Source of the DNA: Limosilactobacillus oris | GTDB lineage: Bacteria > Bacillota > Bacilli > Lactobacillales > Lactobacillaceae | Direction of reading: 5' to 3' | DNA: 64,000 nt | Assembly (NCBI RefSeq): GCF_025311495.1 | Contig: NZ_CP104398.1 | Location: 682,001 to 746,000 of the forward strand | Part shown: piece by piece, positions 13,501 through 25,981 of the stretch | Numbering within the stretch: position 1 is the first letter of the stretch | Layout: each line of letters begins with the position of its first letter | Program-made: the position numbers and the translations under genes | The notes under the pieces: model-generated | The model's input: only the letters and a program-made list of their open reading frames with translations | What the model was told of the DNA's origin: nothing | Database searches by the model: none

Positions 13501-14850
13501 TTACTTAGCAAGAGTTTCAATCATGTAGTGGTTGATCGTGTCCTTGATTTCTTCCAGGTGGTCAGACTGAGTTGCGGCCCGCAGTTGTGCTTGTGGAGTA
13601 TCAATAACCTTAGCTTCAAGGCTCTTGAAGTCTTCCTTGCCGTCTTCGATTTCCTTACCCAGACCTTCGTCCCAGCTAGCGTAACGGGTCTTGAGAACGT
13701 CGTCGATGAAGCCGTCTTCCTTCATGGCGGCGGCTACCCGCAGACCTGCGGCAAAGCTGTCCATGCCGACAATGTGACCGTAGAAGAGGTCTTCTGGCTT
13801 GAAGGAAGTCCGCCGTGGCTTAGCATCAAAGTTCAGACCACCACGAGGGCCGATGCTGCCGTTTTCGATAACTTCCCACATAGCAGCAGTAGTTTCGTAC
13901 AGGTTGGATGGGTATTCATCAATGTCCCAGCCAATCAGCTTGTCACCCTGGTTAGCATCCAGAGAACCAAGCAGGCCAGCCTCACGGGCAACCCGGATTT
14001 CGTGCTGGTAAGTGTGGCCGGCCAGGTTAGCGTGGTTACCTTCAAGGTTGAGCTTAAAGTCCTTGTCCAGACCATATTCACGCATGAAGTTGATAGTTGT
14101 TGCGGCATCAAAGTCGTATTGGTGCGTGGTTGGTTCCTTTGGCTTTGGTTCCAGCAGCATTTGAGCATCGAAACCAATTTCGTTAGCGTAGTCCTTTGCC
14201 ATGTGGAACATCTTGGCAATGTGTGATTGTTCACGCTTCATTTCGGTATTCCAAAGTGATTCGTAACCTTCACGGCCGCCCCAGAAGACGTAGTTCTCTG
14301 AGCCAACCCGCTTACCAATTTCCAGACTGTGTTTCAATTGGGCACAAGCGTAAGCGTAGATTTCGGATGATGGTGCAGTACCAGCACCGGACAGGAAGCG
14401 AGGGTTCGTGAACAGGTTGGAAGTGTTCCACAGAACCTTCATGCCAGTGTCCTTTTGGTATTCCACAATCTTGTCAACAACCTTGTCCAGGTTCTTGTTG
14501 GTTTCACGCAGAGTGTCACCTTCTGGAGCCAAGTCCCGGTCGTGGAAGCAAAGGAAGTCAACGCCTAACTTCTTGTAAAATTCAAATGCGTAATCCACCT
14601 TGGCAAGTGCTTGGTCCATTGGGTCACTGTACTTGTCATATGGACGAGTAGCAGTTCCGTCACCGAATGGGTCAACCAACCGTTGGTCAAAGGTGTGCCA
14701 GTAAGCAACTGAGAACCGTAACCAGTCCTTCATCTTCTTACCTAAGATTACTTCGTCTGGGTTGTAGTATTGATAGAACAAGCCGGACTTCAGGCTCTTG
14801 TGTGGGCCTTCATATTTAATGTCACCAATGTTTTCCCATAAATCAGCCAT
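13501..14850 (-). CDS. xylA: Xylose isomerase
   Basis: A 449-residue group II xylose isomerase converting D-xylose to D-xylulose in the cytoplasm. Signatures include [12 protein letters not shown] (catalytic His), [20 protein letters not shown] and [13 protein letters not shown], which supply the metal and substrate ligands. ATG 14850 follows CAGGAGG. The promoter carries a cre over the -35 and a XylR operator after the -10, and xylB follows. Codon use is strongly biased, as expected for a highly expressed sugar gene. Confidence 0.98.
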
Positions 14851-16117: not shown

Positions 16118-16528
16118 CTAGTAAAGCTGAATCCCATCGAATACCCAGAGGTCAGGGATTGCTGTAACCTTGCGGATAGTGTCAGAAACATCGCTCAATC
16201 GTGGGTTTGGAAATACGGAACCGGTAAATTTGGCATTCCTATCTGGATAGGAAATTGTTAATTGCCAAGTTCCGACGTCAGTAGCAAAGTCCATCTGGTC
16301 ATCTGGCTGTTGAAATTTTTCGGCGACCATCCCCAACACAGTTTCCGCCGTGCTAGCATCAACCTGCTTTTCAATATGACGAACCTCTTCGGTGCTCGTT
16401 CCTGCTGAAAAATCAACCCGACCATCAGCAAAAATCGTCAGTACTTGGCCAACCTCCTCGCCCCGCTTTGGTGGCGAAAAGAAAGAAAAATTTTCTGAAT
16501 CGAGTTGGATTTTGGTGATGTCTTGCAT
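16118..16528 (-). CDS. Unknown 136-residue protein
   Basis: I do not recognise this family. It is a soluble, acidic protein with no signal peptide or membrane segment. It reads like an alpha+beta fold: strands near VLTIFADGRVDF (28-39) and GTWQLTISYP (86-95), and a C-terminal LWVFDGIQLY. ATG 16528 follows TGAGGAGG, a strong ribosome site, so it is probably a real gene. It lies 18 bases after the 504-residue CxxC protein and is likely co-transcribed with it, ending at a clear terminator. Its place beside a restriction-modification locus suggests accessory cargo, but no function can be assigned. Confidence 0.7.
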   Translation of the reverse strand: MQDITKIQLDSENFSFFSPPKRGEEVGQVLTIFADGRVDFSAGTSTEEVRHIEKQVDASTAETVLGMVAEKFQQPDDQMDFATDVGTWQLTISYPDRNAKFTGSVFPNPRLSDVSDTIRKVTAIPDLWVFDGIQLY

Positions 16529-16546: not shown

Positions 16547-18061
16547 TCACTTCAGGTAATCTTTTAATTGTTGTAGGTCTTTCTCTGACACCCGTTGCAA
16601 ATCGTCCTCAATAAATAGGTCAATTACCCCCTTAACACCCTGGTCAATTTTATCGCTGAGATAATCCTCAACAGCACGGTAAAAGGTGTAAAGAAGAATC
16701 TTGTAGTAAAGCAGTTGACTTTGCTTTTCCTCGTAAGGTAAATCCAACACCCTGTTTTCATCTGCCGCTGGTAAAGAAATTTTTGCCTTATATGACGCAT
16801 ATTCTGAAATCGCCTTGGCAACATCAATCACTTTTTTCCGGTCTGGCATGAAGCTTTCAACAGTACCTTCCAGCATTTGATAGCAATTAATCACCGCCTT
16901 AATTGGGGCATTCAGTGAGTCATTGTACTTCTCAGAAAACTCCCTGAGCGGTTCATAGTACCTCGGTGGGAGTGGTAGGTTGACATCTTCTAGAAGCTCG
17001 CAGTAGTCAAGAAACTCGGCCCGCTTGTCTGCATTGAAAAAGCCATGGCTTAGCGCAATTTGAAATTCCTTTTCTGGGAAATCCAGGTTCTTTTCGGCAC
17101 CCTTAACAACCGCCGTCCAGTCATCATCAACCTGGACCATCAACTTAATTAGCTCCTCCCCAGATTTCTGATCGAGTACAGAATGACGGAGCACGTGGTA
17201 AGGATTCAAGAAAAGTACACTTTCATTATACTTATTCTTCAACTCCAACAAGTGCTGAGCGTCCTGACCACAAACACACTTTCCAGCCACTGGTACAGAA
17301 CCATTAAAAGTACCATGGAGATCTTCGATAAATTCCCAGCCACTACTACTAAAAAGTCGTTCCATATCATTTTGCAAGTATTGAAAGCGGTAAACGATAA
17401 AAGAATTTAATGCATTTAACTTAGCTGAAGATATGGATTGCTTCCGTTCAATATTCACTGTTTTCTTAACACCTTTCTTTTCCACACTGAGTGCATATCT
17501 ACGTAGCTGCGCTTCATCCCTTGAATATAAGGGCAAATCTACCCGACGAAATTCTTCAATCCGTCGTGCAAAGTTGCTGCTTGCAATCTGAGGATAATCC
17601 GGCGATTTTCTGGCTTGCTGGTATCGTTCCTCAGGAAAACGCTGCCCCACAGCATATAGCCGAATAATTGAATCTCGATAGATATCAACTTCATTTTTCC
17701 GGTCCATAATTTCTTTTTTGACCTTACCGGAAAGCCTAATCTCATCTTCAAAGCACTTTTTGCCTAAGCTGATGGACTTATTCTTACTCAGTGAAGACAG
17801 CACATAGCTATCCTTAATCGGGTGGTAGCCACAAATATCACACTTCAGCGAGTAGCCTTCATGTATCCGTCCTCGTTGGTAATGTGGGTCCGTTTCAATT
17901 CCCTCAAAAATCCAATCATCAGCCTGCATAAACTGTAAAGTGATATTAAATGAAACCCATAATAGCCGACCAAATTGACGCAAAACCTTTACTTGCTCCG
18001 GACTCATCGTTTGCACAATTCTGCTCCGCTCTTCGTCCGTATAGAAATTAATCCCTGTCAT
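16547..18061 (-). CDS. Unknown 504-residue protein with CxxC motifs
   Basis: I do not recognise this protein. Near residues 60-100 it has KCDICGYHP followed by LGKKCF, and near 275 it has GKCVCGQDAQH. These look like two small zinc-binding sites. The rest is mainly helical, rich in Lys, Glu and Tyr, with no membrane segment. Coding sequence is visibly more AT-rich than the flanking xyl genes. ATG 18061 (MTGINFY) is chosen because AGGGG lies about 9 bases upstream; the longer frame starts at a GTG with no site. It is followed by the 136-residue gene, and the restriction locus lies upstream. A nucleic-acid-binding role is only a guess from the Cys motifs. Confidence 0.7.
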   Translation of the reverse strand: MTGINFYTDEERSRIVQTMSPEQVKVLRQFGRLLWVSFNITLQFMQADDWIFEGIETDPHYQRGRIHEGYSLKCDICGYHPIKDSYVLSSLSKNKSISLGKKCFEDEIRLSGKVKKEIMDRKNEVDIYRDSIIRLYAVGQRFPEERYQQARKSPDYPQIASSNFARRIEEFRRVDLPLYSRDEAQLRRYALSVEKKGVKKTVNIERKQSISSAKLNALNSFIVYRFQYLQNDMERLFSSSGWEFIEDLHGTFNGSVPVAGKCVCGQDAQHLLELKNKYNESVLFLNPYHVLRHSVLDQKSGEELIKLMVQVDDDWTAVVKGAEKNLDFPEKEFQIALSHGFFNADKRAEFLDYCELLEDVNLPLPPRYYEPLREFSEKYNDSLNAPIKAVINCYQMLEGTVESFMPDRKKVIDVAKAISEYASYKAKISLPAADENRVLDLPYEEKQSQLLYYKILLYTFYRAVEDYLSDKIDQGVKGVIDLFIEDDLQRVSEKDLQQLKDYLK

Positions 18062-18241
18062 TACATAAACCCCTATCTCGTTTTTTGAAATCCCTTTCAC
18101 AATTATATGGTTTCTATCACTACACTGGCAAGATATTTCTCACGATTCCGGCATTCCACACACGATAAAACTATAAATTTCTGCAAGCTTGCGTGAATTT
18201 GCAGATTTGTCGTGTGTCATTTGCCGAAATGGAGCAAAGCA

Positions 18242-18281: not shown

Positions 18282-18992
18282 CTATTCAAGTTCCTGCTTA
18301 TAAATATCTGTCCACTTACAAATTGCGTACCGTGCCGACGGAAGATCATCTTCTTGCTTTGCATCGTCAAAGTCTTCTGTGCTATCAAACAGATCTAACT
18401 GCTGACTAGAATGTTGGACTGTTCCCGTGGGACCACTCTGGTTAAGAATTGACTCAAAGGTATATTCCGTCCGCCGTACCTTGCTGGGCTGACCAGCCAC
18501 TGTCTGCCATTCACTAAACACAATTGGCGCTCCCGTGTCAGTAATTCCCTCGAGGGTGTCACCCTGGGCCATGTTCGCCCGAATAATCACTTGCGCACTC
18601 TTCAGGACATGGTCGTTAACCCGTCCCTTAAAGTCATCGACAATGATTCGTGAATAGGTCTGACTAAACGTCATCATCATATTCATCACAAGCATTTCAA
18701 CGTTATCCTCAAGATATTCAATTCCGTATAACGTTGATAATGCAACCAATACATTGGTATTAAAGGCACTAGCAGTATTGCTTTGCTTGGCGGCAATCTT
18801 GAGTTTCCGCTTCAAAAGTTCGGTTAAGAAGGCACCTTCACCAGCAGACGGTTCCAAAAAGGTAGCGTGCAGGTTATTAATCTTGGCCGTTATTTCTGGT
18901 TGGTCGAGCATGAAGTCTACCACTCGTTTAGGCGTAAAGACCTCACCATGGTTCTTGACCCGATCGGCAGATTTGATTATTTTTTCAGTCAT
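18282..18992 (-). CDS. N6-adenine methyltransferase SAM-binding module without NPPY
   Basis: A 236-residue protein with the N-terminal half of a gamma-type DNA methyltransferase. It has motif X-like GEVFTPKRVVDFML (17-30), motif I FLEPSAGEGAF (46-56), YGIEYLEDNVE (motif II region) and NMAQGDTLEG (motif III region). It ends without the catalytic D/NPPY motif IV or any target-recognition domain. The C-terminal quarter is acidic and low in complexity. It starts 17 bases after the 1490-residue helicase-methyltransferase and is surely co-transcribed. Proposed role: partner subunit that supplies or regulates SAM binding for the modification activity. The motifs are seen; the partnership is inference. 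Confidence 0.8.
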   Translation of the reverse strand: MTEKIIKSADRVKNHGEVFTPKRVVDFMLDQPEITAKINNLHATFLEPSAGEGAFLTELLKRKLKIAAKQSNTASAFNTNVLVALSTLYGIEYLEDNVEMLVMNMMMTFSQTYSRIIVDDFKGRVNDHVLKSAQVIIRANMAQGDTLEGITDTGAPIVFSEWQTVAGQPSKVRRTEYTFESILNQSGPTGTVQHSSQQLDLFDSTEDFDDAKQEDDLPSARYAICKWTDIYKQELE

Positions 18993-19009
18993 AGTTCACC
19001 GTCAACCAC

Positions 19010-22000
19010 TTAATCCATCGCCTGAACTTTGGTTTCAATGAAGTTGATTTCATCATCCGTCAAGCCATACTTCTTGTAGAGCTGCTGGTCAATCTCTGGG
19101 ATTGGTTTTGACCAGTCAATATCGGAGTTTTGAGTAAAGTCTTGCATAGGAACAAGTTTCCAAGTCTTTGAGGTATTGTCCTGTGTAATTTTAAGAATTC
19201 CTAACATTACACGGGCAAATTTTGTTTTGACGTACTTCATTGCAGAAGTTGCTTCAAATTCCGTGTTAAATTGTCCAATACTGATAAACGTTTGCGTGTT
19301 CCCAACCAGAGGTTTCCCAACCAGAGGTTTCCCAACCAGAGGAGTACTTAAAGTTTCACCTAAAGAGCCACTACCATTGGCCTTGGGCACAAATACTTTC
19401 CAGGTCTCCAAATTCGTATTGTTAGAAATATATTCCTGTCTTATATATCTGAAAACTCTCTTTTTCTTTGATAGTCCTAGAATTTTGATATATTTATGAT
19501 TATCTTTAGGGACCTCTTTATGGAATATATCTGGAAGTTTATCAAAAACATTTGATTTCAAATCAAATTTATGTCCTTTACTTAAACGAGAAGCTGCGGA
19601 AGGATTATCGATATGCATCTTATTAGTGAACTTATAAGTCTCGGGTGCAAAAACTATCTTACTTAATCCGTTTATTTTCTCTTTGTTAGTAACATGACCT
19701 AAGATACCTACTAAAACTTTAAACGGAATATAAATCCCGGCTGGCGCGTACAATTCTTTAATTGATCCAAATTGTTGATTCTCGTCTAGAAGGGTGATCA
19801 CTACCCCCCCCTTAATATCTGTACGAGGGAACACGTCACTACTATTCGCATTGTATTGGATTACTTTTAAATGCGAATTATTTAGCATTTTTCTATTCCA
19901 ATCTTTTGGTGTACTCCCCGCATTAAATAAAAATCTAGCGGGTGTAATCAATGTTACTAGACTACTGAGCTTCTCAGACAAATCATAGAATTCATTATAG
20001 ATAGGTGCTCTATAGTTGTCATTATCTCCATGCGATTCGTCTTGATACGGTGGGTTCCCAATTACAACATCAAACTTCATACCACCAAATACCCCTTTAA
20101 TTTTCTTTGCTTCTGCGCTTACATCTTCTTTAGCATCTTTAACGATGTTTGGCACATACTCAACGTTCATATCAAAGTCCTGGTAGCCAGCAAGGGTCCG
20201 TTGCGCAATTGTCTTGGCCATCGGTGTCTTAGCAATTAAAAATAAGTTTTCACGCAAAATCCGCTGCCAAATAAATAACTGGTCGTCCAAGCCAAATTTT
20301 CCAGCGGTCTTTTCATTTAGCTTCTGGAATGCTTGCCAGTACAAGGACATCCCCGCATAAAGTGGGTATAACCCCGTCTTGGAGTTAATTTCTAAGATGT
20401 GCGTGTCGTCCTTAAAGACTTGGTCCGTATATTCGGTCTGAACCCAGTGGTTAGCACTGACGCCATCTTTAGTCGAATATTGGTAGGAATCATCAAAGAA
20501 GGACAGGCCACCAATAGTTTTCCCGAGGTGCATATTGACAACCCGCCACGGTGTCAGAACCGTTTCCTTGTCTGGGTTCCTAAACGTGCCAAAAATCCCA
20601 GCAAGTTCTTCAGCCCGTTCAATCGGGTCTAGTTTATCCAATGCTTTGACCTTCCGACGAATAATGCGCCCCGCCTCAATGAAGACATCCTGGTCATAGT
20701 ACTTGCTAAATTTACGGAAGAGGTCCTTAGTGACGCCCTTCGGCATGAATTCTTTCCAAGACTCATCATCGACGTTTTCAATGAACTTATTAATGTTCAC
20801 GTCATCGGACAGCTCGATATCCATCCCATAAATCATCATTGGAATCCGGATCGAAATGGACCGCAGAATTGAAATCATCGTCTTCCGTTGCTTCTTCAGT
20901 TCCTTCATCTTCTCGATGGCGGCTTCTTCCTCTGGCGTCCGGTCTTTCTTCCGCTTCTTTTTCTTACCGTTCAGTGCATCATTGTATTCTTCATCAGTGA
21001 GCCCCTGGTGGTTAATATCGACTTTCACTGGCTTCTTCTCAGATGGAGTTGTCCCGACAATTGCCTTAAGATCATTAAATTCTTTCAGATCAACATCTTT
21101 CAGCATCAGCAACTCATCACTGTACAGGGAGTCATCATCAAAACCAGTCCGGACTGCTTTTTCGGCGTAAACTCGCTTAATTTGTGCCAGCATAGTGTCA
21201 ACACTGTAACGTTTCATTCCGTTCCCGTTCATTCCAATGATTGGGAGGAAGTTCATCAGCTCTTTCATCTGGTCCTTCTGAGCACTACTGGTTCGCTTAC
21301 CAACCCCAGTTCGCAGTTGGGTTGATTCGGCCATAACCGTCAAAGCCCGGTCAGGAGCAAAGTCGAAGATATAGCAATTGGTCTTCTTCCCGAAAGTTGG
21401 CGACGAGTACGGCGTCTGCGCACGGAAAGCCGCTTGCAGGTATTGCATGGCACTGTTGGTGTTAGACAGGAATACAACACCCGTCCACGGCTTGACCGTT
21501 ACACCGGTTGTGAGCTTACGAACCGTCAAAGTAATCGTCTTGGTAGCAGCCGGGTCATCCCCGATTGCCTCATTAACCCGGTCCACATCACTTTCTGAAG
21601 TTATCCCGGTATCGTCCCCGGCAACATTCTTCACCACGTTGACAATCTGGTAGCCACTTGCCTCGCCCAGAACCGGATCCTTCTTAAGGAGCGCCTCCAT
21701 CGCGCCAGCTTCCTTTACACCGGGCATAATCCAGAGTGTGTGGCGGAGATTATCCCGGAACTCTTTCTTTGAGAATGGGTAATTGGTCCGGCTATCCGGC
21801 GAAGTAATGTTTGCGAGGAATTGTTTTACCTTATCCTCATACACAAATTTCCCCTGGCTATTGACACGGAAGAATTCCTTGAAGTTAAAGGAGTGCGTAC
21901 CATCCCCTATAAACTGTGGCTCATCAAAGTTCTTGTTCATTTCAAAGGTGAACATATTAACCTTAGGCAGGCTTGCATACGGGTTTGGTTCACTCGGATG

Positions 22001-23482
22001 GTCAATTCCCCATTGAAGTTTTGCCTGTTGCTCCTGAGTGTAATCCCAGGTGTAAACTTGGTCTTCATCGTACTGGTCAAGAATATTAAATGGCGTTCCT
22101 GAGAGTTCGAGTACTTTCGTATCATCACTAGAGACAAGCTGCGTAACGTTCTGGGCTAACTCCGTCTGGGTCCCTTCATGAGCCTCATCAATAATTACCA
22201 GGTCCCAGTGAGTATCAAATAGTTCCCGGTTCTTGTCGCCAGCCTTCCCACCGGCCTCTTCAGAGCCACGTAAGTCCTGAAGAGAAGCAAAGTAAACGAA
22301 TGGCTGGTCAGAGTCTTCAAGTTCATTGAAGGTGGCACCCTGTTTTTTAGAACCGTACAGGTAACCAACTTCAGGCATCCCAATCTTCTTAAAATCTTCA
22401 AACCAACCTTCATCTACGACCGGCCGGTGAGTCATGATTAGCACATGTTCAAATTTTTCATCCTTGACCAGTTGCAAGGCTGAGAGCGTTTTACCAAAGC
22501 GCATTTTGGCATTCCACAACATCTTGTTATGCTTCTTAAATGCCTTCTTTGCTTTTTCGACAGCCTCTTTTTGCTCCGGCCGGAGAACAATTTTGACTTT
22601 CGGCTGACCCTGCCGTTTCAAATCAATGGTCGACTGTTGGTTTTTAACGGCCTTGATGGCTGCTTTTGCTGTCGGAAGGTCGGTGTGGAACCACTCCTGT
22701 CCCTGTAAAATATCACTGTGCTTAACACCAGAACGTTCAAGAACCCGGTGAACGTCAGTATCCGTGAACCACATGTCGTCTGATTTCCGGTATGCCAGCT
22801 CGACCCACTCAAGATTTAGCGGAAGCCCGGATGTGGTCATATACTGCTTAATCCGTTTTTCGGCGTCCTCACGCATCTCAGGGCTGTTATCACTATTATC
22901 ACGGGCCAAGTCACCAGCCTGAGCTTTCCCAATCTTGAGGTTGCCCACGTATTCTGCAAAGTGCCCATTCGAGGTATCAGCACTTTGAACGTAGATGATA
23001 TTACGGTCTGATGCCGGCGGACGCACCGTCGTTGAGTACAAGAAGTCATCCAGTTTTGGCTCCTTAAAAGCCGTCACATCTACCTTCTCATCATAAAAAG
23101 TATTGACGAACCAGACCAATAAGATATAAAGATGCTTAATTGTGTCAAGCGCCTCTTCCTGACTAATCAGGGTTGCAGTTGCCAGTTCATGAGCAGCTCT
23201 GTTTCCAGGCTTCTTGATTGCGTAAAAGAGGTCAATTGCATAGGAATCAATAATATTTTTCTGCTTCAAGTCATGCAAAACATTACTAAAGGTACTGTGC
23301 ACCCCAACCTTTACAAACTTCTGGTCAGCAATATCGCGTGCCAGGTTTTCGGCGACGGTCCGCGTCAGCGTCAATACCGGATTATAAAACCCTTGCGTGT
23401 AGATAGCTTCAGCTTGCATTGCACTTTCAAAGTACTGCGCCGTTAACGGTTCATCCATTAAAAATGAGAAGTTACTTTTCAT
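19010..23482 (-). CDS. Restriction-modification fusion: nuclease, SF2 helicase and adenine methyltransferase
   Basis: A 1490-residue multi-domain protein. In order: a DUF4145/HEPN-like helical domain (about 30-130, GNRAAHEL); a GIY-YIG domain of T5orf172 type (about 161-278: IIYVQS, LKIGKA, DTDVHRVL, EWF); an SF2 helicase (motif I NAKMRFGKT 324-332, II IIDEAHEG, III SGTPF, VI QAAFRAQT); a Lys-rich linker (839-867); a methyltransferase module (TPWRVVNMHL 977-986, ILEINSKTGLYPLY 1029-1042, motif IV IGNPPY 1141-1146); and a C-terminal recognition region with a pentapeptide repeat. The combination suggests ATP-dependent cutting and methylation by one polypeptide, as in Type ISP enzymes, but with a different nuclease. 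The gene has its own promoter and the partner module follows. Domain names rest on motif reading. Confidence 0.85.
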   Translation of the reverse strand: MKSNFSFLMDEPLTAQYFESAMQAEAIYTQGFYNPVLTLTRTVAENLARDIADQKFVKVGVHSTFSNVLHDLKQKNIIDSYAIDLFYAIKKPGNRAAHELATATLISQEEALDTIKHLYILLVWFVNTFYDEKVDVTAFKEPKLDDFLYSTTVRPPASDRNIIYVQSADTSNGHFAEYVGNLKIGKAQAGDLARDNSDNSPEMREDAEKRIKQYMTTSGLPLNLEWVELAYRKSDDMWFTDTDVHRVLERSGVKHSDILQGQEWFHTDLPTAKAAIKAVKNQQSTIDLKRQGQPKVKIVLRPEQKEAVEKAKKAFKKHNKMLWNAKMRFGKTLSALQLVKDEKFEHVLIMTHRPVVDEGWFEDFKKIGMPEVGYLYGSKKQGATFNELEDSDQPFVYFASLQDLRGSEEAGGKAGDKNRELFDTHWDLVIIDEAHEGTQTELAQNVTQLVSSDDTKVLELSGTPFNILDQYDEDQVYTWDYTQEQQAKLQWGIDHPSEPNPYASLPKVNMFTFEMNKNFDEPQFIGDGTHSFNFKEFFRVNSQGKFVYEDKVKQFLANITSPDSRTNYPFSKKEFRDNLRHTLWIMPGVKEAGAMEALLKKDPVLGEASGYQIVNVVKNVAGDDTGITSESDVDRVNEAIGDDPAATKTITLTVRKLTTGVTVKPWTGVVFLSNTNSAMQYLQAAFRAQTPYSSPTFGKKTNCYIFDFAPDRALTVMAESTQLRTGVGKRTSSAQKDQMKELMNFLPIIGMNGNGMKRYSVDTMLAQIKRVYAEKAVRTGFDDDSLYSDELLMLKDVDLKEFNDLKAIVGTTPSEKKPVKVDINHQGLTDEEYNDALNGKKKKRKKDRTPEEEAAIEKMKELKKQRKTMISILRSISIRIPMMIYGMDIELSDDVNINKFIENVDDESWKEFMPKGVTKDLFRKFSKYYDQDVFIEAGRIIRRKVKALDKLDPIERAEELAGIFGTFRNPDKETVLTPWRVVNMHLGKTIGGLSFFDDSYQYSTKDGVSANHWVQTEYTDQVFKDDTHILEINSKTGLYPLYAGMSLYWQAFQKLNEKTAGKFGLDDQLFIWQRILRENLFLIAKTPMAKTIAQRTLAGYQDFDMNVEYVPNIVKDAKEDVSAEAKKIKGVFGGMKFDVVIGNPPYQDESHGDNDNYRAPIYNEFYDLSEKLSSLVTLITPARFLFNAGSTPKDWNRKMLNNSHLKVIQYNANSSDVFPRTDIKGGVVITLLDENQQFGSIKELYAPAGIYIPFKVLVGILGHVTNKEKINGLSKIVFAPETYKFTNKMHIDNPSAASRLSKGHKFDLKSNVFDKLPDIFHKEVPKDNHKYIKILGLSKKKRVFRYIRQEYISNNTNLETWKVFVPKANGSGSLGETLSTPLVGKPLVGKPLVGNTQTFISIGQFNTEFEATSAMKYVKTKFARVMLGILKITQDNTSKTWKLVPMQDFTQNSDIDWSKPIPEIDQQLYKKYGLTDDEINFIETKVQAMD
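19301..19342. repeat. 15-bp in-frame tandem repeat in the recognition region
   Basis: Two perfect copies of cccaaccagaggttt and a third copy of 12 bases lie head to tail. On the coding (minus) strand they encode the pentapeptide LVGKP, so copy change would add or remove five residues without a frameshift (about residues 1380-1394). Confidence 0.9.
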
Positions 23483-23545: not shown

Positions 23546-23575
23546 ATTATAATCTTGCAGGCCATTAATTAACAA
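23546..23575 (-). promoter_or_regulatory. Promoter of the restriction-modification operon
   Basis: Minus strand: -35 TTGTTA (23570-23575), 18-base spacer, perfect -10 TATAAT (23546-23551), about 60 bases before the start codon. No regulator gene or inverted-repeat control box was seen. Confidence 0.65.
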
Positions 23576-23689: not shown

Positions 23690-25981
23690 TTAGAGTGTGA
23701 AATCACTTACACCGTTAGTCAGCTGTTCGTCTTGAGCCCGTCCATTTTCGTGAACCGTAACGGTCAAGTCACCGCTCAGGCCGGTCGTCTTAACCGTGAA
23801 CTGGTTCCCCTGCCGAGTAACGATAACTTCAGCCGCATCCTCACCGTGCTTATCAACCACTTGAACCTTGGTCGTCCCCTCGTGCATATCAAAGAGCTGG
23901 ATATTAACGTCCTTGGTGTAGTCATAATCAGCGTGCTCAGGGTGGTCGCGCGTAACCAAAATTGTGTTGTCACGGACTAGCACTGGCAAGTGGAGCTCAT
24001 CATAGTGCTTCGTCAGCCACTGGCCGCCCGCAGGCACTTCATAGTGTTCGCCGTCCTGGACGATACTGGTCCATTTCCCTGCTGGCAGGTAGAAATGCAC
24101 GTTTCCTTCTGGGTTGAAGACTGGGGCAACCAGAATCTGGCTACCAAACATGTACTGGTTGGCAATGGTGCGGGTATTGTAGTCATCACCAAATTCGAAC
24201 CACATTGGCCGCATCAGTGGGTTCCCGTAGTGGGCACTGTGGGCCGCCTGGGTATACAGGTATGGCATCAGTGAAAGCTTCAGATTAACGTACTTCCGGC
24301 TGTTTTCAACCGCTTCGTCGTCGAAGTTCCATGGAACCCGGTAGACGTCACTACCGTGGTACCGACTATGCGAGGATAGCAGACCAAACTGAGTCCAACG
24401 CTTGTAAAGATCAGCAGTTGGGGTGTCCGGCCCGTCTTCAAACCCGCCAATGTCGTGACTCCAGAAGCCAAAGCCGGAGCTCAGGAATGACAGCCCACCG
24501 TGAAGGGTGTCAGACATGGACTTGAAGGTGGACAGGCAGTCACCGCCCCAGTGAACCGGGAACTTCTGTGAGCCGACCGTTGCGGACCGGGCAAAGACAA
24601 CCGCTTCGTCGCGGCCCTTAACTTCAGCAATCACATCAAACGTGGCCTTGTTGTACTGGTAAGTGTAGTAGTTGTGTTCACGCTTCGGGTCAGAGCCGTC
24701 GAAGTAAACAGCGTCGTCCATTGGGATCCGCTCACCAAAGTCGGTCTTGAAGCAGTCAACCCCCATGTCGAGCAGCTTCTTCAGCTTGCCCTGGTACCAC
24801 TTAACGGCATCCGGGTTGGTAAAGTCAATGAAGCCGTTCCCTGCTTGCCAGAGGTCCCACTGCCAAACATTGCCATCGGTCCGCTTAACCAGGTAGCCGT
24901 GTTCCTTACCTTCCTTGAACATCTGGCTCTTCTGGGCAATGTATGGGTTGATCCATACACAGACCTTAATGCCCTTGTTGTGGATTTCCTTAATCAGCTT
25001 TTCAGGGTCCGGGAATTCGTCATTGTTCCAAGTCAGGTTACTCCACTCGAAGTCGCGTTGCCAGAAGCAGTCGAAGTGGAAGACGTCCAACGGAATATGA
25101 CGTTCTTCCATCCCGTTGATAAACTTCATCACAGTCTGTTCACTGTAATCGGTCAAAAAGGAAGTGGTCAGCCACAAACCGAAGGACCAGGAAGGCGGCA
25201 GTTGAACTTTACCAGTTAATTCGGTGTACTTGTGTAAAATTTCCTGTGGCGTTGGCCCGTAGATGACGAAGTATTCGAGTGATTGGCCTTCAATACTGAA
25301 TTGAACCCGATCAACATTTTCGGAAGCAATTTCGAAATCCACCGGTTCCGGCTGGTTGACAAAGACACCGTAGCCATCATCAGTGATATAGAACGGAACG
25401 TTCTTGTAGGCCTGGTCAGAGCCAGTTCCCCCATCCTTGTTAATCGTCCGGACTTCCTGACCGTTCTTTACAAAGTTGCCGAAGCGTTCACCCAAGCCGT
25501 AAACGTGGGTGTCGACGCCGAGGGACAATTGTTCGCGCATGTAGTGCTTGCCGTTGTCCCGGTTCGTAATTTCACCCTGGGCGCGGTGACGGGAGGCCGT
25601 AATTTCCTTCCCATCGGCGTTGAAGGTCATCGCAAATTCTTGCCGCAGTGGCACGTTAACTTGAAGGCGCCCACTCTGCAATGAGGCTGCCTGGTCGTCA
25701 ACGTGGATATCAACATCCGGGTGCTGGTCGGTCAGCTCAAAGGATGGTTCCTTCTGGTTCTGGTCAAAGTGCGTTAGCTTGACCCCGATTACATCCTCGG
25801 CGGGTGAGCTGAGCTTAATCGTGGTCATCCCGATGTTTAATTCATCCCCCCGGCCGTTAATCCGCTTGTAGGGAGCAAAAACATTCAGTTCCTTGTCTTC
25901 CTGTTCTGCCGTAAAGGCTTCTTCGGGATGATTAATTTGATATTCCTTCTTGTCTAACCAATAACCATTTGTAAACTTCAT
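23690..25981 (-). CDS. xylQ: GH31 alpha-xylosidase
   Basis: A 763-residue GH31 enzyme close in length and motifs to YicI-type alpha-xylosidases, which split isoprimeverose (alpha-xylosyl-1,6-glucose). The nucleophile is Asp414 in DCFKTDFGERIP, the Phe/Gly context typical of xylosidase rather than glucosidase. The acid/base is Asp481 in HWGGDCLST. An N-terminal beta-sandwich and C-terminal beta domains flank the barrel. No signal peptide. It is 15 bases after the XylP-like symporter, the same pairing as xylPQ of Lactobacillus pentosus, so the two likely import and cleave isoprimeverose from xyloglucan. Confidence 0.93.
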   Translation of the reverse strand: MKFTNGYWLDKKEYQINHPEEAFTAEQEDKELNVFAPYKRINGRGDELNIGMTTIKLSSPAEDVIGVKLTHFDQNQKEPSFELTDQHPDVDIHVDDQAASLQSGRLQVNVPLRQEFAMTFNADGKEITASRHRAQGEITNRDNGKHYMREQLSLGVDTHVYGLGERFGNFVKNGQEVRTINKDGGTGSDQAYKNVPFYITDDGYGVFVNQPEPVDFEIASENVDRVQFSIEGQSLEYFVIYGPTPQEILHKYTELTGKVQLPPSWSFGLWLTTSFLTDYSEQTVMKFINGMEERHIPLDVFHFDCFWQRDFEWSNLTWNNDEFPDPEKLIKEIHNKGIKVCVWINPYIAQKSQMFKEGKEHGYLVKRTDGNVWQWDLWQAGNGFIDFTNPDAVKWYQGKLKKLLDMGVDCFKTDFGERIPMDDAVYFDGSDPKREHNYYTYQYNKATFDVIAEVKGRDEAVVFARSATVGSQKFPVHWGGDCLSTFKSMSDTLHGGLSFLSSGFGFWSHDIGGFEDGPDTPTADLYKRWTQFGLLSSHSRYHGSDVYRVPWNFDDEAVENSRKYVNLKLSLMPYLYTQAAHSAHYGNPLMRPMWFEFGDDYNTRTIANQYMFGSQILVAPVFNPEGNVHFYLPAGKWTSIVQDGEHYEVPAGGQWLTKHYDELHLPVLVRDNTILVTRDHPEHADYDYTKDVNIQLFDMHEGTTKVQVVDKHGEDAAEVIVTRQGNQFTVKTTGLSGDLTVTVHENGRAQDEQLTNGVSDFTL

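What the first reader, a model, noticed from the sequence alone, without database searches (positions are those of the whole stretch)
18282..23482. Two-gene restriction-modification system with GIY-YIG-helicase-methyltransferase fusion and a split SAM module
The 1490-residue protein appears to carry, in one chain, a GIY-YIG (T5orf172-like) nuclease with IIYVQS, LKIGKA and a far EWF, an SF2 helicase and an adenine methyltransferase with NPPY. Type ISP enzymes (LlaGI, LlaBIII) use a Mrr-type nuclease in this place. Here a different nuclease and a separate 236-residue SAM-binding partner are used. The motifs are seen; the joint mechanism is inference.
Basis: partly seen in the sequence, partly recalled or inferred. 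Interest (0 to 1): 0.75.

Follow-up and report, generated by a model that had tools for sequence, protein, structure and literature searches.

The report
Split-methylase restriction system of DrdVI type
This is a two-gene bacterial DNA restriction-modification system of a known but little-studied kind (DrdVI type), in which the enzyme that marks the cell's own DNA appears to be split over two proteins; it is a fused form of a known kind rather than a new class.

Summary
19010-23482(-) encodes 1490 aa: DUF4145, GIY-YIG nuclease (T5orf172/MUG113), SF2 motor, Eco57I-type adenine methyltransferase with NPPY, variable C-terminal region. 18282-18992(-) encodes 236 aa with methyltransferase motifs X, I, II, III and no NPPY. 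It is a DrdVI-type system: the three genes of plasmid pDrdVI (M1, M2, R) match its parts one to one, and M1-2.DrdVI is published as methylating GCAGCC. Here R and M2 are fused, as in 22 of 31 loci examined from the window's order. It is not a Type ISP enzyme, although LlaBIII is the best fold match of the large protein.

What is added concerns the split. In the sets compared, M1 keeps the SAM signature (GxG 243/243, motif II acid 243/243) without NPPY (0/243); M2 keeps NPPY (219/219) but has Lys for a motif-I Gly (219/219) and no motif II acid (0/219). In seven loci the NPPY half is a separate gene; seven single chains join an M1-like half to an NPPY half. So M1 probably supplies SAM in trans. 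This is inferred, and a model of M2 alone as a complete fold speaks against it.

The parts
23033..23482 (-). Large protein residues 1-150: DUF4145 domain, also similar to the N terminus of a Type I HsdR family (PRK11448)
   Evidence: Pfam PF13643 4.1e-6 at residues 38-117; NCBIfam NF008521 best stretch residues 1-149 (68.6 bits, cut-off 729)
22613..23020 (-). Large protein residues 155-290: GIY-YIG nuclease (T5orf172/MUG113 type)
   Evidence: Gathering scores passed by the cut-out piece; 30 of 37 N-termini match T5orf172. Y164, K183, G185, R210, D241, E263 identical in 37 of 37. AF2 topology
21083..22612 (-). Large protein residues 291-800: SF2 ATPase/translocase motor
   Evidence: ResIII 2.4e-16; motifs RFGKT, DEAH, SGTPF, QAAFRAQ; LlaBIII, RadD and SNF2 fold matches
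20603..21082 (-). Large protein residues 801-960: mostly helical linker between motor and methyltransferase
   Evidence: AF2 model
20078..20602 (-). M2N, large residues 961-1135: degenerate SAM half (TPWRVV; ILEINSKTG with Lys1035; no motif II acid)
   Evidence: Lys in 219 of 219 and an acid at the motif II position in 0 of 219 of the M2 set; AF2 fold
19763..20077 (-). M2cat, large residues 1136-1240: catalytic half, NPPYQ 1143-1147
   Evidence: NPPYQ 219/219; the NPPY half is a separate gene in 7 relatives
19013..19762 (-). Large residues 1241-1490: presumed target recognition region; last 40 residues conserved
   Evidence: Residues 1151-1450 are 26-68% identical per 50-residue block to G020 and P0001 while 1-1150 are 90-100% identical
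19299..19343 (-). Three in-frame 15-bp repeats (PLVGK units, residues about 1380-1394) inside the variable region
   Evidence: 67 of 120 relatives have 2 or more such units by regex, 11 of them 3
18282..18992 (-). M1, 236 aa: SAM-binding half (X HGEVFTP 15-21, I FLEPSAGEGAF 45-55, II YGIE 89-92, III QGDTL 143-147, conserved EW 161-162), no NPPY. Starts 17 nt after the large gene's stop
23546..23575 (-). Promoter-like site upstream of the large gene (TTGTTA-18-TATAAT)
   Evidence: 13 such sites in the region against a mean of 10.9 (sd 3.2) in shuffles, so weak

Best explanation
A DrdVI-type, ATP-dependent, Type IIG-like restriction-modification system in which R (GIY-YIG nuclease plus SF2 translocase) and M2 (catalytic NPPY half plus target recognition) are fused in one 1490-aa chain and M1 (SAM-binding half) is separate. 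M1 and M2 together methylate one adenine of a short asymmetric site (m6A). Most likely M1 provides the SAM pocket in trans to the NPPY half of M2, while M2's own N-terminal half (M2N) has lost the SAM signature and couples the methyltransferase to the motor. On DNA whose site lacks the mark, the motor translocates and the GIY-YIG domain cuts, probably when two complexes meet, as described for Type ISP. Shown here: domain content, homology of all parts to DrdVI, motif complementarity, gene splits and fusions, replacement of the region after NPPY. Published for relatives: methylation by cloned M1 and M2. Inferred: trans active site, translocation, cleavage, defence in this strain, target sequence.
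Confidence: 0.78

Rival explanations
1. M2 of the large protein is a complete, self-sufficient methyltransferase that binds SAM in its own altered pocket; M1 is a pseudo-methyltransferase partner that stabilises it or senses SAM (METTL3/METTL14-like logic, recalled).
For: AF2 gives M2 alone a complete fold at high confidence, with CamA matched over both halves. The Lys of M2 motif I is invariant in the set (219/219), so M2N is under constraint and not simply decaying.
Against: In the M2 set the motif II position is never acidic (0/219) and the first motif I glycine is never kept. In 7 loci the NPPY half is encoded apart from M2N. Seven single chains use an M1-like half without the KSG pattern. 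M1 and M2 of MaeIV were expressed from one clone, apparently also those of DrdVI.
Confidence: 0.3
2. It is a Type ISP enzyme (LlaGI/LlaBIII kind) with an exchanged nuclease and an incidental neighbour gene.
Against: The nuclease is GIY-YIG, not Mrr-type. Intact M2 and R parts lie beside M1 in 28 of 31 loci. Homology by sequence leads to DrdVI; by phmmer no PDB sequence matched the large protein at E<=1, and LlaBIII/LlaGI are not among the 7 weak hits of the profile search.
Confidence: 0.1
3. The locus is a defective or orphan remnant without restriction activity.
For: No phenotype is known for this strain; a related system in Bibersteinia is described as fragmented and inactive (PMC4996451, passage), and L233 is broken.
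Against: Both ORFs intact, the motifs looked for are present; low dN/dS in motor and nuclease and a replaced region after NPPY.
Confidence: 0.1

Closest known systems
DrdVI (M1, M2 and R on pDrdVI, Deinococcus wulumuqiensis 479; GCAGCC)
   Same: All three parts homologous: M1 SAM half, M2 with NPPY, R with GIY-YIG-type N terminus and SF2 motor
   Different: Three genes in the order M1-M2-R; no DUF4145 match in its R; here R and M2 are fused R-first and M1 comes last; target here unknown
MaeIV (M1-M2, Methanococcus aeolicus; GCACY)
   Same: Called a 'split methylase' similar to DrdVI, m6A on one strand (passages)
   Different: Archaeal; its sequences were not compared here
Type ISP enzymes LlaGI and LlaBIII
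   Same: Motor, methyltransferase and recognition region in one chain; best fold match
   Different: Mrr-like nuclease and a single protein; no M1 (definition read in PMC3874165, passage)
OspHL35III-type Type IIG-like systems (PMC4752239, S4 Fig legend)
   Same: Methyltransferase with translocase and GIY-YIG nuclease
   Different: MmeI-like methyltransferase, three separate proteins; passage only, sequences not compared

Membership tests
DrdVI-type split-methylase R-M | M1: small separate protein with motifs X/I/II/III homologous to M1.DrdVI | tested here: met
   32% identity over 195 aa, E 8e-28; motifs
DrdVI-type split-methylase R-M | M2: Eco57I-type methyltransferase with NPPY homologous to M2.DrdVI | tested here: met
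   27% over 382 aa, E 2e-36; PF07669 in both
DrdVI-type split-methylase R-M | R: GIY-YIG nuclease plus SF2 motor homologous to R.DrdVI | tested here: met
   28% over 765 aa, E 1e-71; R.DrdVI (L012) is in the GIY-YIG alignment
DrdVI-type split-methylase R-M | m6A methylation of an asymmetric site by M1+M2 | not testable with these tools
   Needs SMRT data of the strain or a clone
Type ISP | Mrr-like PD-(D/E)XK nuclease at the N terminus | tested here: not met
   Pfam shows DUF4145 and no Mrr family; the nuclease piece passes T5orf172/MUG113 gathering scores
Type ISP | Single polypeptide carries the whole system | tested here: inconclusive
   By context a second gene belongs to it: M1 17 nt downstream, M2 and R parts beside M1 in 28 of 31 loci. 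That M1 is needed was not tested
Type ISP | SF2 translocase followed by gamma-type methyltransferase and C-terminal recognition region | tested here: met
Type I R-M | Separate HsdS specificity subunit | tested here: not met
   No HsdS family in the two proteins or in the two downstream neighbours scanned; the rest of the genome was not searched for one
GIY-YIG superfamily (T5orf172/MUG113) | Conserved Tyr, KxG, Arg and Glu in the right order | tested here: met
   Y164, K183, G185, R210, E263 in 37 of 37
GIY-YIG superfamily (T5orf172/MUG113) | Fold match to a solved GIY-YIG nuclease | tested here: inconclusive
   Motor and methyltransferase fill the rows shown for the long model

The most novel reading that the evidence does not exclude
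One catalytic NPPY half has two alternative N-terminal partners: M1 (SAM-binding) and M2N (pseudo-SAM half carrying an invariant Lys, tied to the motor). Methylation and restriction would then be two mutually exclusive pairings of the same catalytic/recognition half: M1 docks and the site is methylated; M2N stays docked and the motor is licensed to run and cut. This would be an R-M switch by exchange of half-domains. It would explain why M2N is kept though it lacks the SAM signature, why it stays with the motor when M2 is split, and why its KSG part is missing when an M1-like half and the NPPY half become one chain.
Probability: 0.2. Interest if true: 0.75.

Novelty: new member of a known kind. 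Interest (0 to 1): 0.45.

Why it matters
It places a large group of proteins, many named only 'Eco57I restriction-modification methylase domain-containing protein' where a source names them, in a known R-M kind. It predicts that the small 'N-6 DNA methylase' next to them is required for modification, and gives a sequence-based reason for the name 'split methylase': two chains with complementary motif loss. That is testable with two genes and SMRT sequencing, and it warns that annotation that treats the two genes separately will miss the system. It also matters in practice for transforming lactobacilli.

Tried and rejected
Rejected: Type ISP membership (GIY-YIG instead of Mrr-type nuclease). 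Rejected: the 517-aa gene 16547-18100 as a third component. It has no convincing family match (the best chance-level hit is E 0.027). No match to it turned up in the 31 loci (phmmer, E<=1e-5), and in the 20-kb stretch of the close relative G020, which has the R-M genes at the same xyl position, other small ORFs lie there. Tried without result: phmmer of both proteins against PDB sequences (none, and one chance-level hit at E 0.83); profile searches gave, at E under 0.01, only a Type I methyltransferase for M1 (3ufb, 0.002) and nothing for the large protein; a search for an empty orthologous site (G430 and G429 have the alpha-xylosidase in another context), so insertion into the xyl locus is not claimed; a full-length natural M1-M2 fusion with which to model the complex (none noticed among the 120 listed hits, nor in the loci classified). 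Papers: the listings and the passages I opened do not state the complementary motif loss; most listed papers were not opened, and subscription papers and REBASE itself were not searchable. The E. faecium Type IIG system of PMC12323599 (GGAGG; passages) could not be tied to this family.

Limits of the counts. The M1 set (243) is window + 120 listed relatives + 122 complete loci ORFs of at least 150 bits; the M2 set (219) is window + 115 of 120 listed relatives (5 under 1400 aa dropped) + 103 complete loci ORFs of at least 400 bits with an N half; L113 was dropped from it. Both are biased to closer relatives. The 31 loci are the M1 matches except the window's own and four under 30 bits. One of the 22 fused ORFs (L218, 1337 aa) has only a weak M2 match (94 bits). 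Viral contigs, 79 loci: of L100-L143 (44), 34 have three genes in that order, 5 M1 only, 3 M1+M2, 1 single chain, 1 fused; all 35 of L144-L178 were scored 'M1 only' by the rule used.

Full report
What is there. The window lies at 682001-746000 of a single-contig genome of 2,007,883 bases. A genus mate (G026) has a 909,365-base contig, the same length as the contig of a listed relative whose source names it Limosilactobacillus caccae, so the host is probably a Limosilactobacillus, and its order Lactobacillales (inference). Two genes on the minus strand, 19010-23482 (1490 aa) and 18282-18992 (236 aa), are 17 nt apart, both intact. They lie between what I recognise by sequence (recalled, no family search) as an alpha-xylosidase gene (23690-25981) and a xylose isomerase gene (13501-14850).

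What it is related to. The clue came from the plasmid collection: pDrdVI of Deinococcus wulumuqiensis NEB 479 carries three adjacent genes that match this system part by part. [quoted passage not shown] coli ER2796 (PMC6430315, whole text read). [quoted passage not shown] The finding is therefore a member of a known kind.

How common, in what forms. In 395 genomes of the order, 31 have an M1 match at E<=0.001, the window's own included; four of them, under 30 bits in frames of 463-1095 aa, are probably ordinary methyltransferases. I fetched 31 loci of the order (20 + 11): all other M1 matches except the window's own. Of these 31, 22 have a fused R-M2 ORF of 1337-1491 aa next to M1; 6 have R with the N half of M2 in one ORF of 1061-1150 aa and the NPPY half as a separate 339-352 aa gene; 3 are other (L233 broken, L235 M1 only, L237 only a partial M1 seen). 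Among more distant relatives the three-gene order M1-M2-R rules: 56 of 80 genome-contig loci and 34 of 44 viral loci L100-L143. Plasmids of Lactococcus, Enterococcus, Levilactobacillus, Paenisporosarcina and Arthrobacter carry relatives too.

The split methyltransferase. M1 is similar to the N-terminal part of M2 (M1.DrdVI vs M2.DrdVI, 54 residues, 27.7 bits, E 2e-4). In 243 M1 sequences motif I keeps both glycines (243 and 243) and motif II an acid (E 222, D 21); none has [NDS]PP[YFW]. In 219 M2 sequences NPPYQ is invariant, the first motif I glycine is Lys in all, and the motif II acid position is A 155, G 61, S 2, P 1. The motif equivalences follow from alignment and from the strands in the two models; they are not from a superposition. 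The losses are complementary. More divergent members outside these sets show exceptions: L019 M1 (GEA), Arthrobacter M2N (STAG).

Where nature cuts and joins. In seven loci (six of the order and Arthrobacter L011) the gene border lies just before NPPY, which sits at residue 9-16 of the separate gene; in six of the seven the R gene ends with the KSG-type half. In the opposite direction, 7 of the 120 listed hits of the L113 search (P0241-P0244, P0270, P0283, P0296; P0241 is L113's own product) are single chains in which an M1-like half (62-80% identical to M1.DrdVI over 103-204 residues) leads into the NPPY half, with different junctions; 109 have an M2-like N half and 4 are short. All 7 have motif I GxG, motif II acid and NPPY, and the KSG pattern was found in none; P0243 lacks the motif III pattern. 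Some viral contigs have a small M1-like gene beside an NPP gene: L166 (138 aa, then 279 aa with NPPY at residue 9) and L164 similarly; L173, L175 and L176 have the NPP gene first. In 24 of the 35 loci L144-L178 no ORF over 150 aa with such a motif was seen on that strand within 5 kb. Together these favour M1 + NPPY half as the functional methyltransferase.

Signs of function. Window vs G020: residues 1-1150 are 90-100% identical per 50-residue block and 1151-1450 are 26-68%; P0001 shows the same step. M1 is 94% identical to that of G020 in its first 200 residues. So the stretch after NPPY is exchanged while M1, the motor and M2N stay, as expected for change of target. dN/dS (NG86) is about 0.06 for residues 1-150, 0.14 for 155-300 (few changes), 0.05 for 300-900 and 0.08 for M1.

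Verdict. Observation confirmed; classification as DrdVI-type secure; trans-SAM mechanism likely but inferred; restriction by translocation inferred from Type ISP (definition from PMC3874165, passage).

Noticed in passing
window 16547-18100 (-) and 16118-16528 (-): 517-aa protein without a convincing family match, with a CDICG zinc-finger-like stretch, and a 136-aa protein (weak DUF6438). In relative G020 the 136-aa gene is kept but no match to the 517-aa gene was found in the 20-kb stretch, and several other small unknown ORFs lie there: variable cargo beside the R-M genes.
   Followed up: partly
window 19299-19343: Three in-frame 15-bp repeats (PLVGK) in the variable region; 67 of 120 relatives have 2 or more units by regex and 11 have 3. 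Possibly a spacer whose length tunes specificity, as the repeats in HsdS do (recalled).
   Followed up: partly
L113 5653-7221 and P0242-P0244, P0270, P0283, P0296: Single-chain methyltransferases made of an M1-like half and an M2 catalytic half, with different junctions; L113 lies on a viral contig and no R match was found in its stretch.
   Followed up: partly
L164 2199-3576, L166 1999-3251, L173, L175, L176: Viral contigs with a 138-181 aa M1-like gene beside a separate NPP gene and no R match in the stretch: possible minimal two-gene split adenine methyltransferases.
   Followed up: partly
L144-L178 (viral contigs): Many 131-197 aa M1-like SAM halves; in 24 of these 35 loci no NPP gene was seen on the same strand within 5 kb, so their partner, if any, is unknown.
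   Followed up: no
L014 5120-5968, L019 1784-2704: M1 counterparts of a divergent subgroup with an N-terminal extension and altered motif I; one is annotated 'restriction endonuclease'.
   Followed up: no
L010 5183-10100 (Mycolicibacterium plasmid): DrdVI-type M1-M2-R genes near two tyrosine-recombinase genes, a DUF6262 gene, a TIR-domain gene and a second helicase/DUF1156 pair: looks like a defence island.
   Followed up: no
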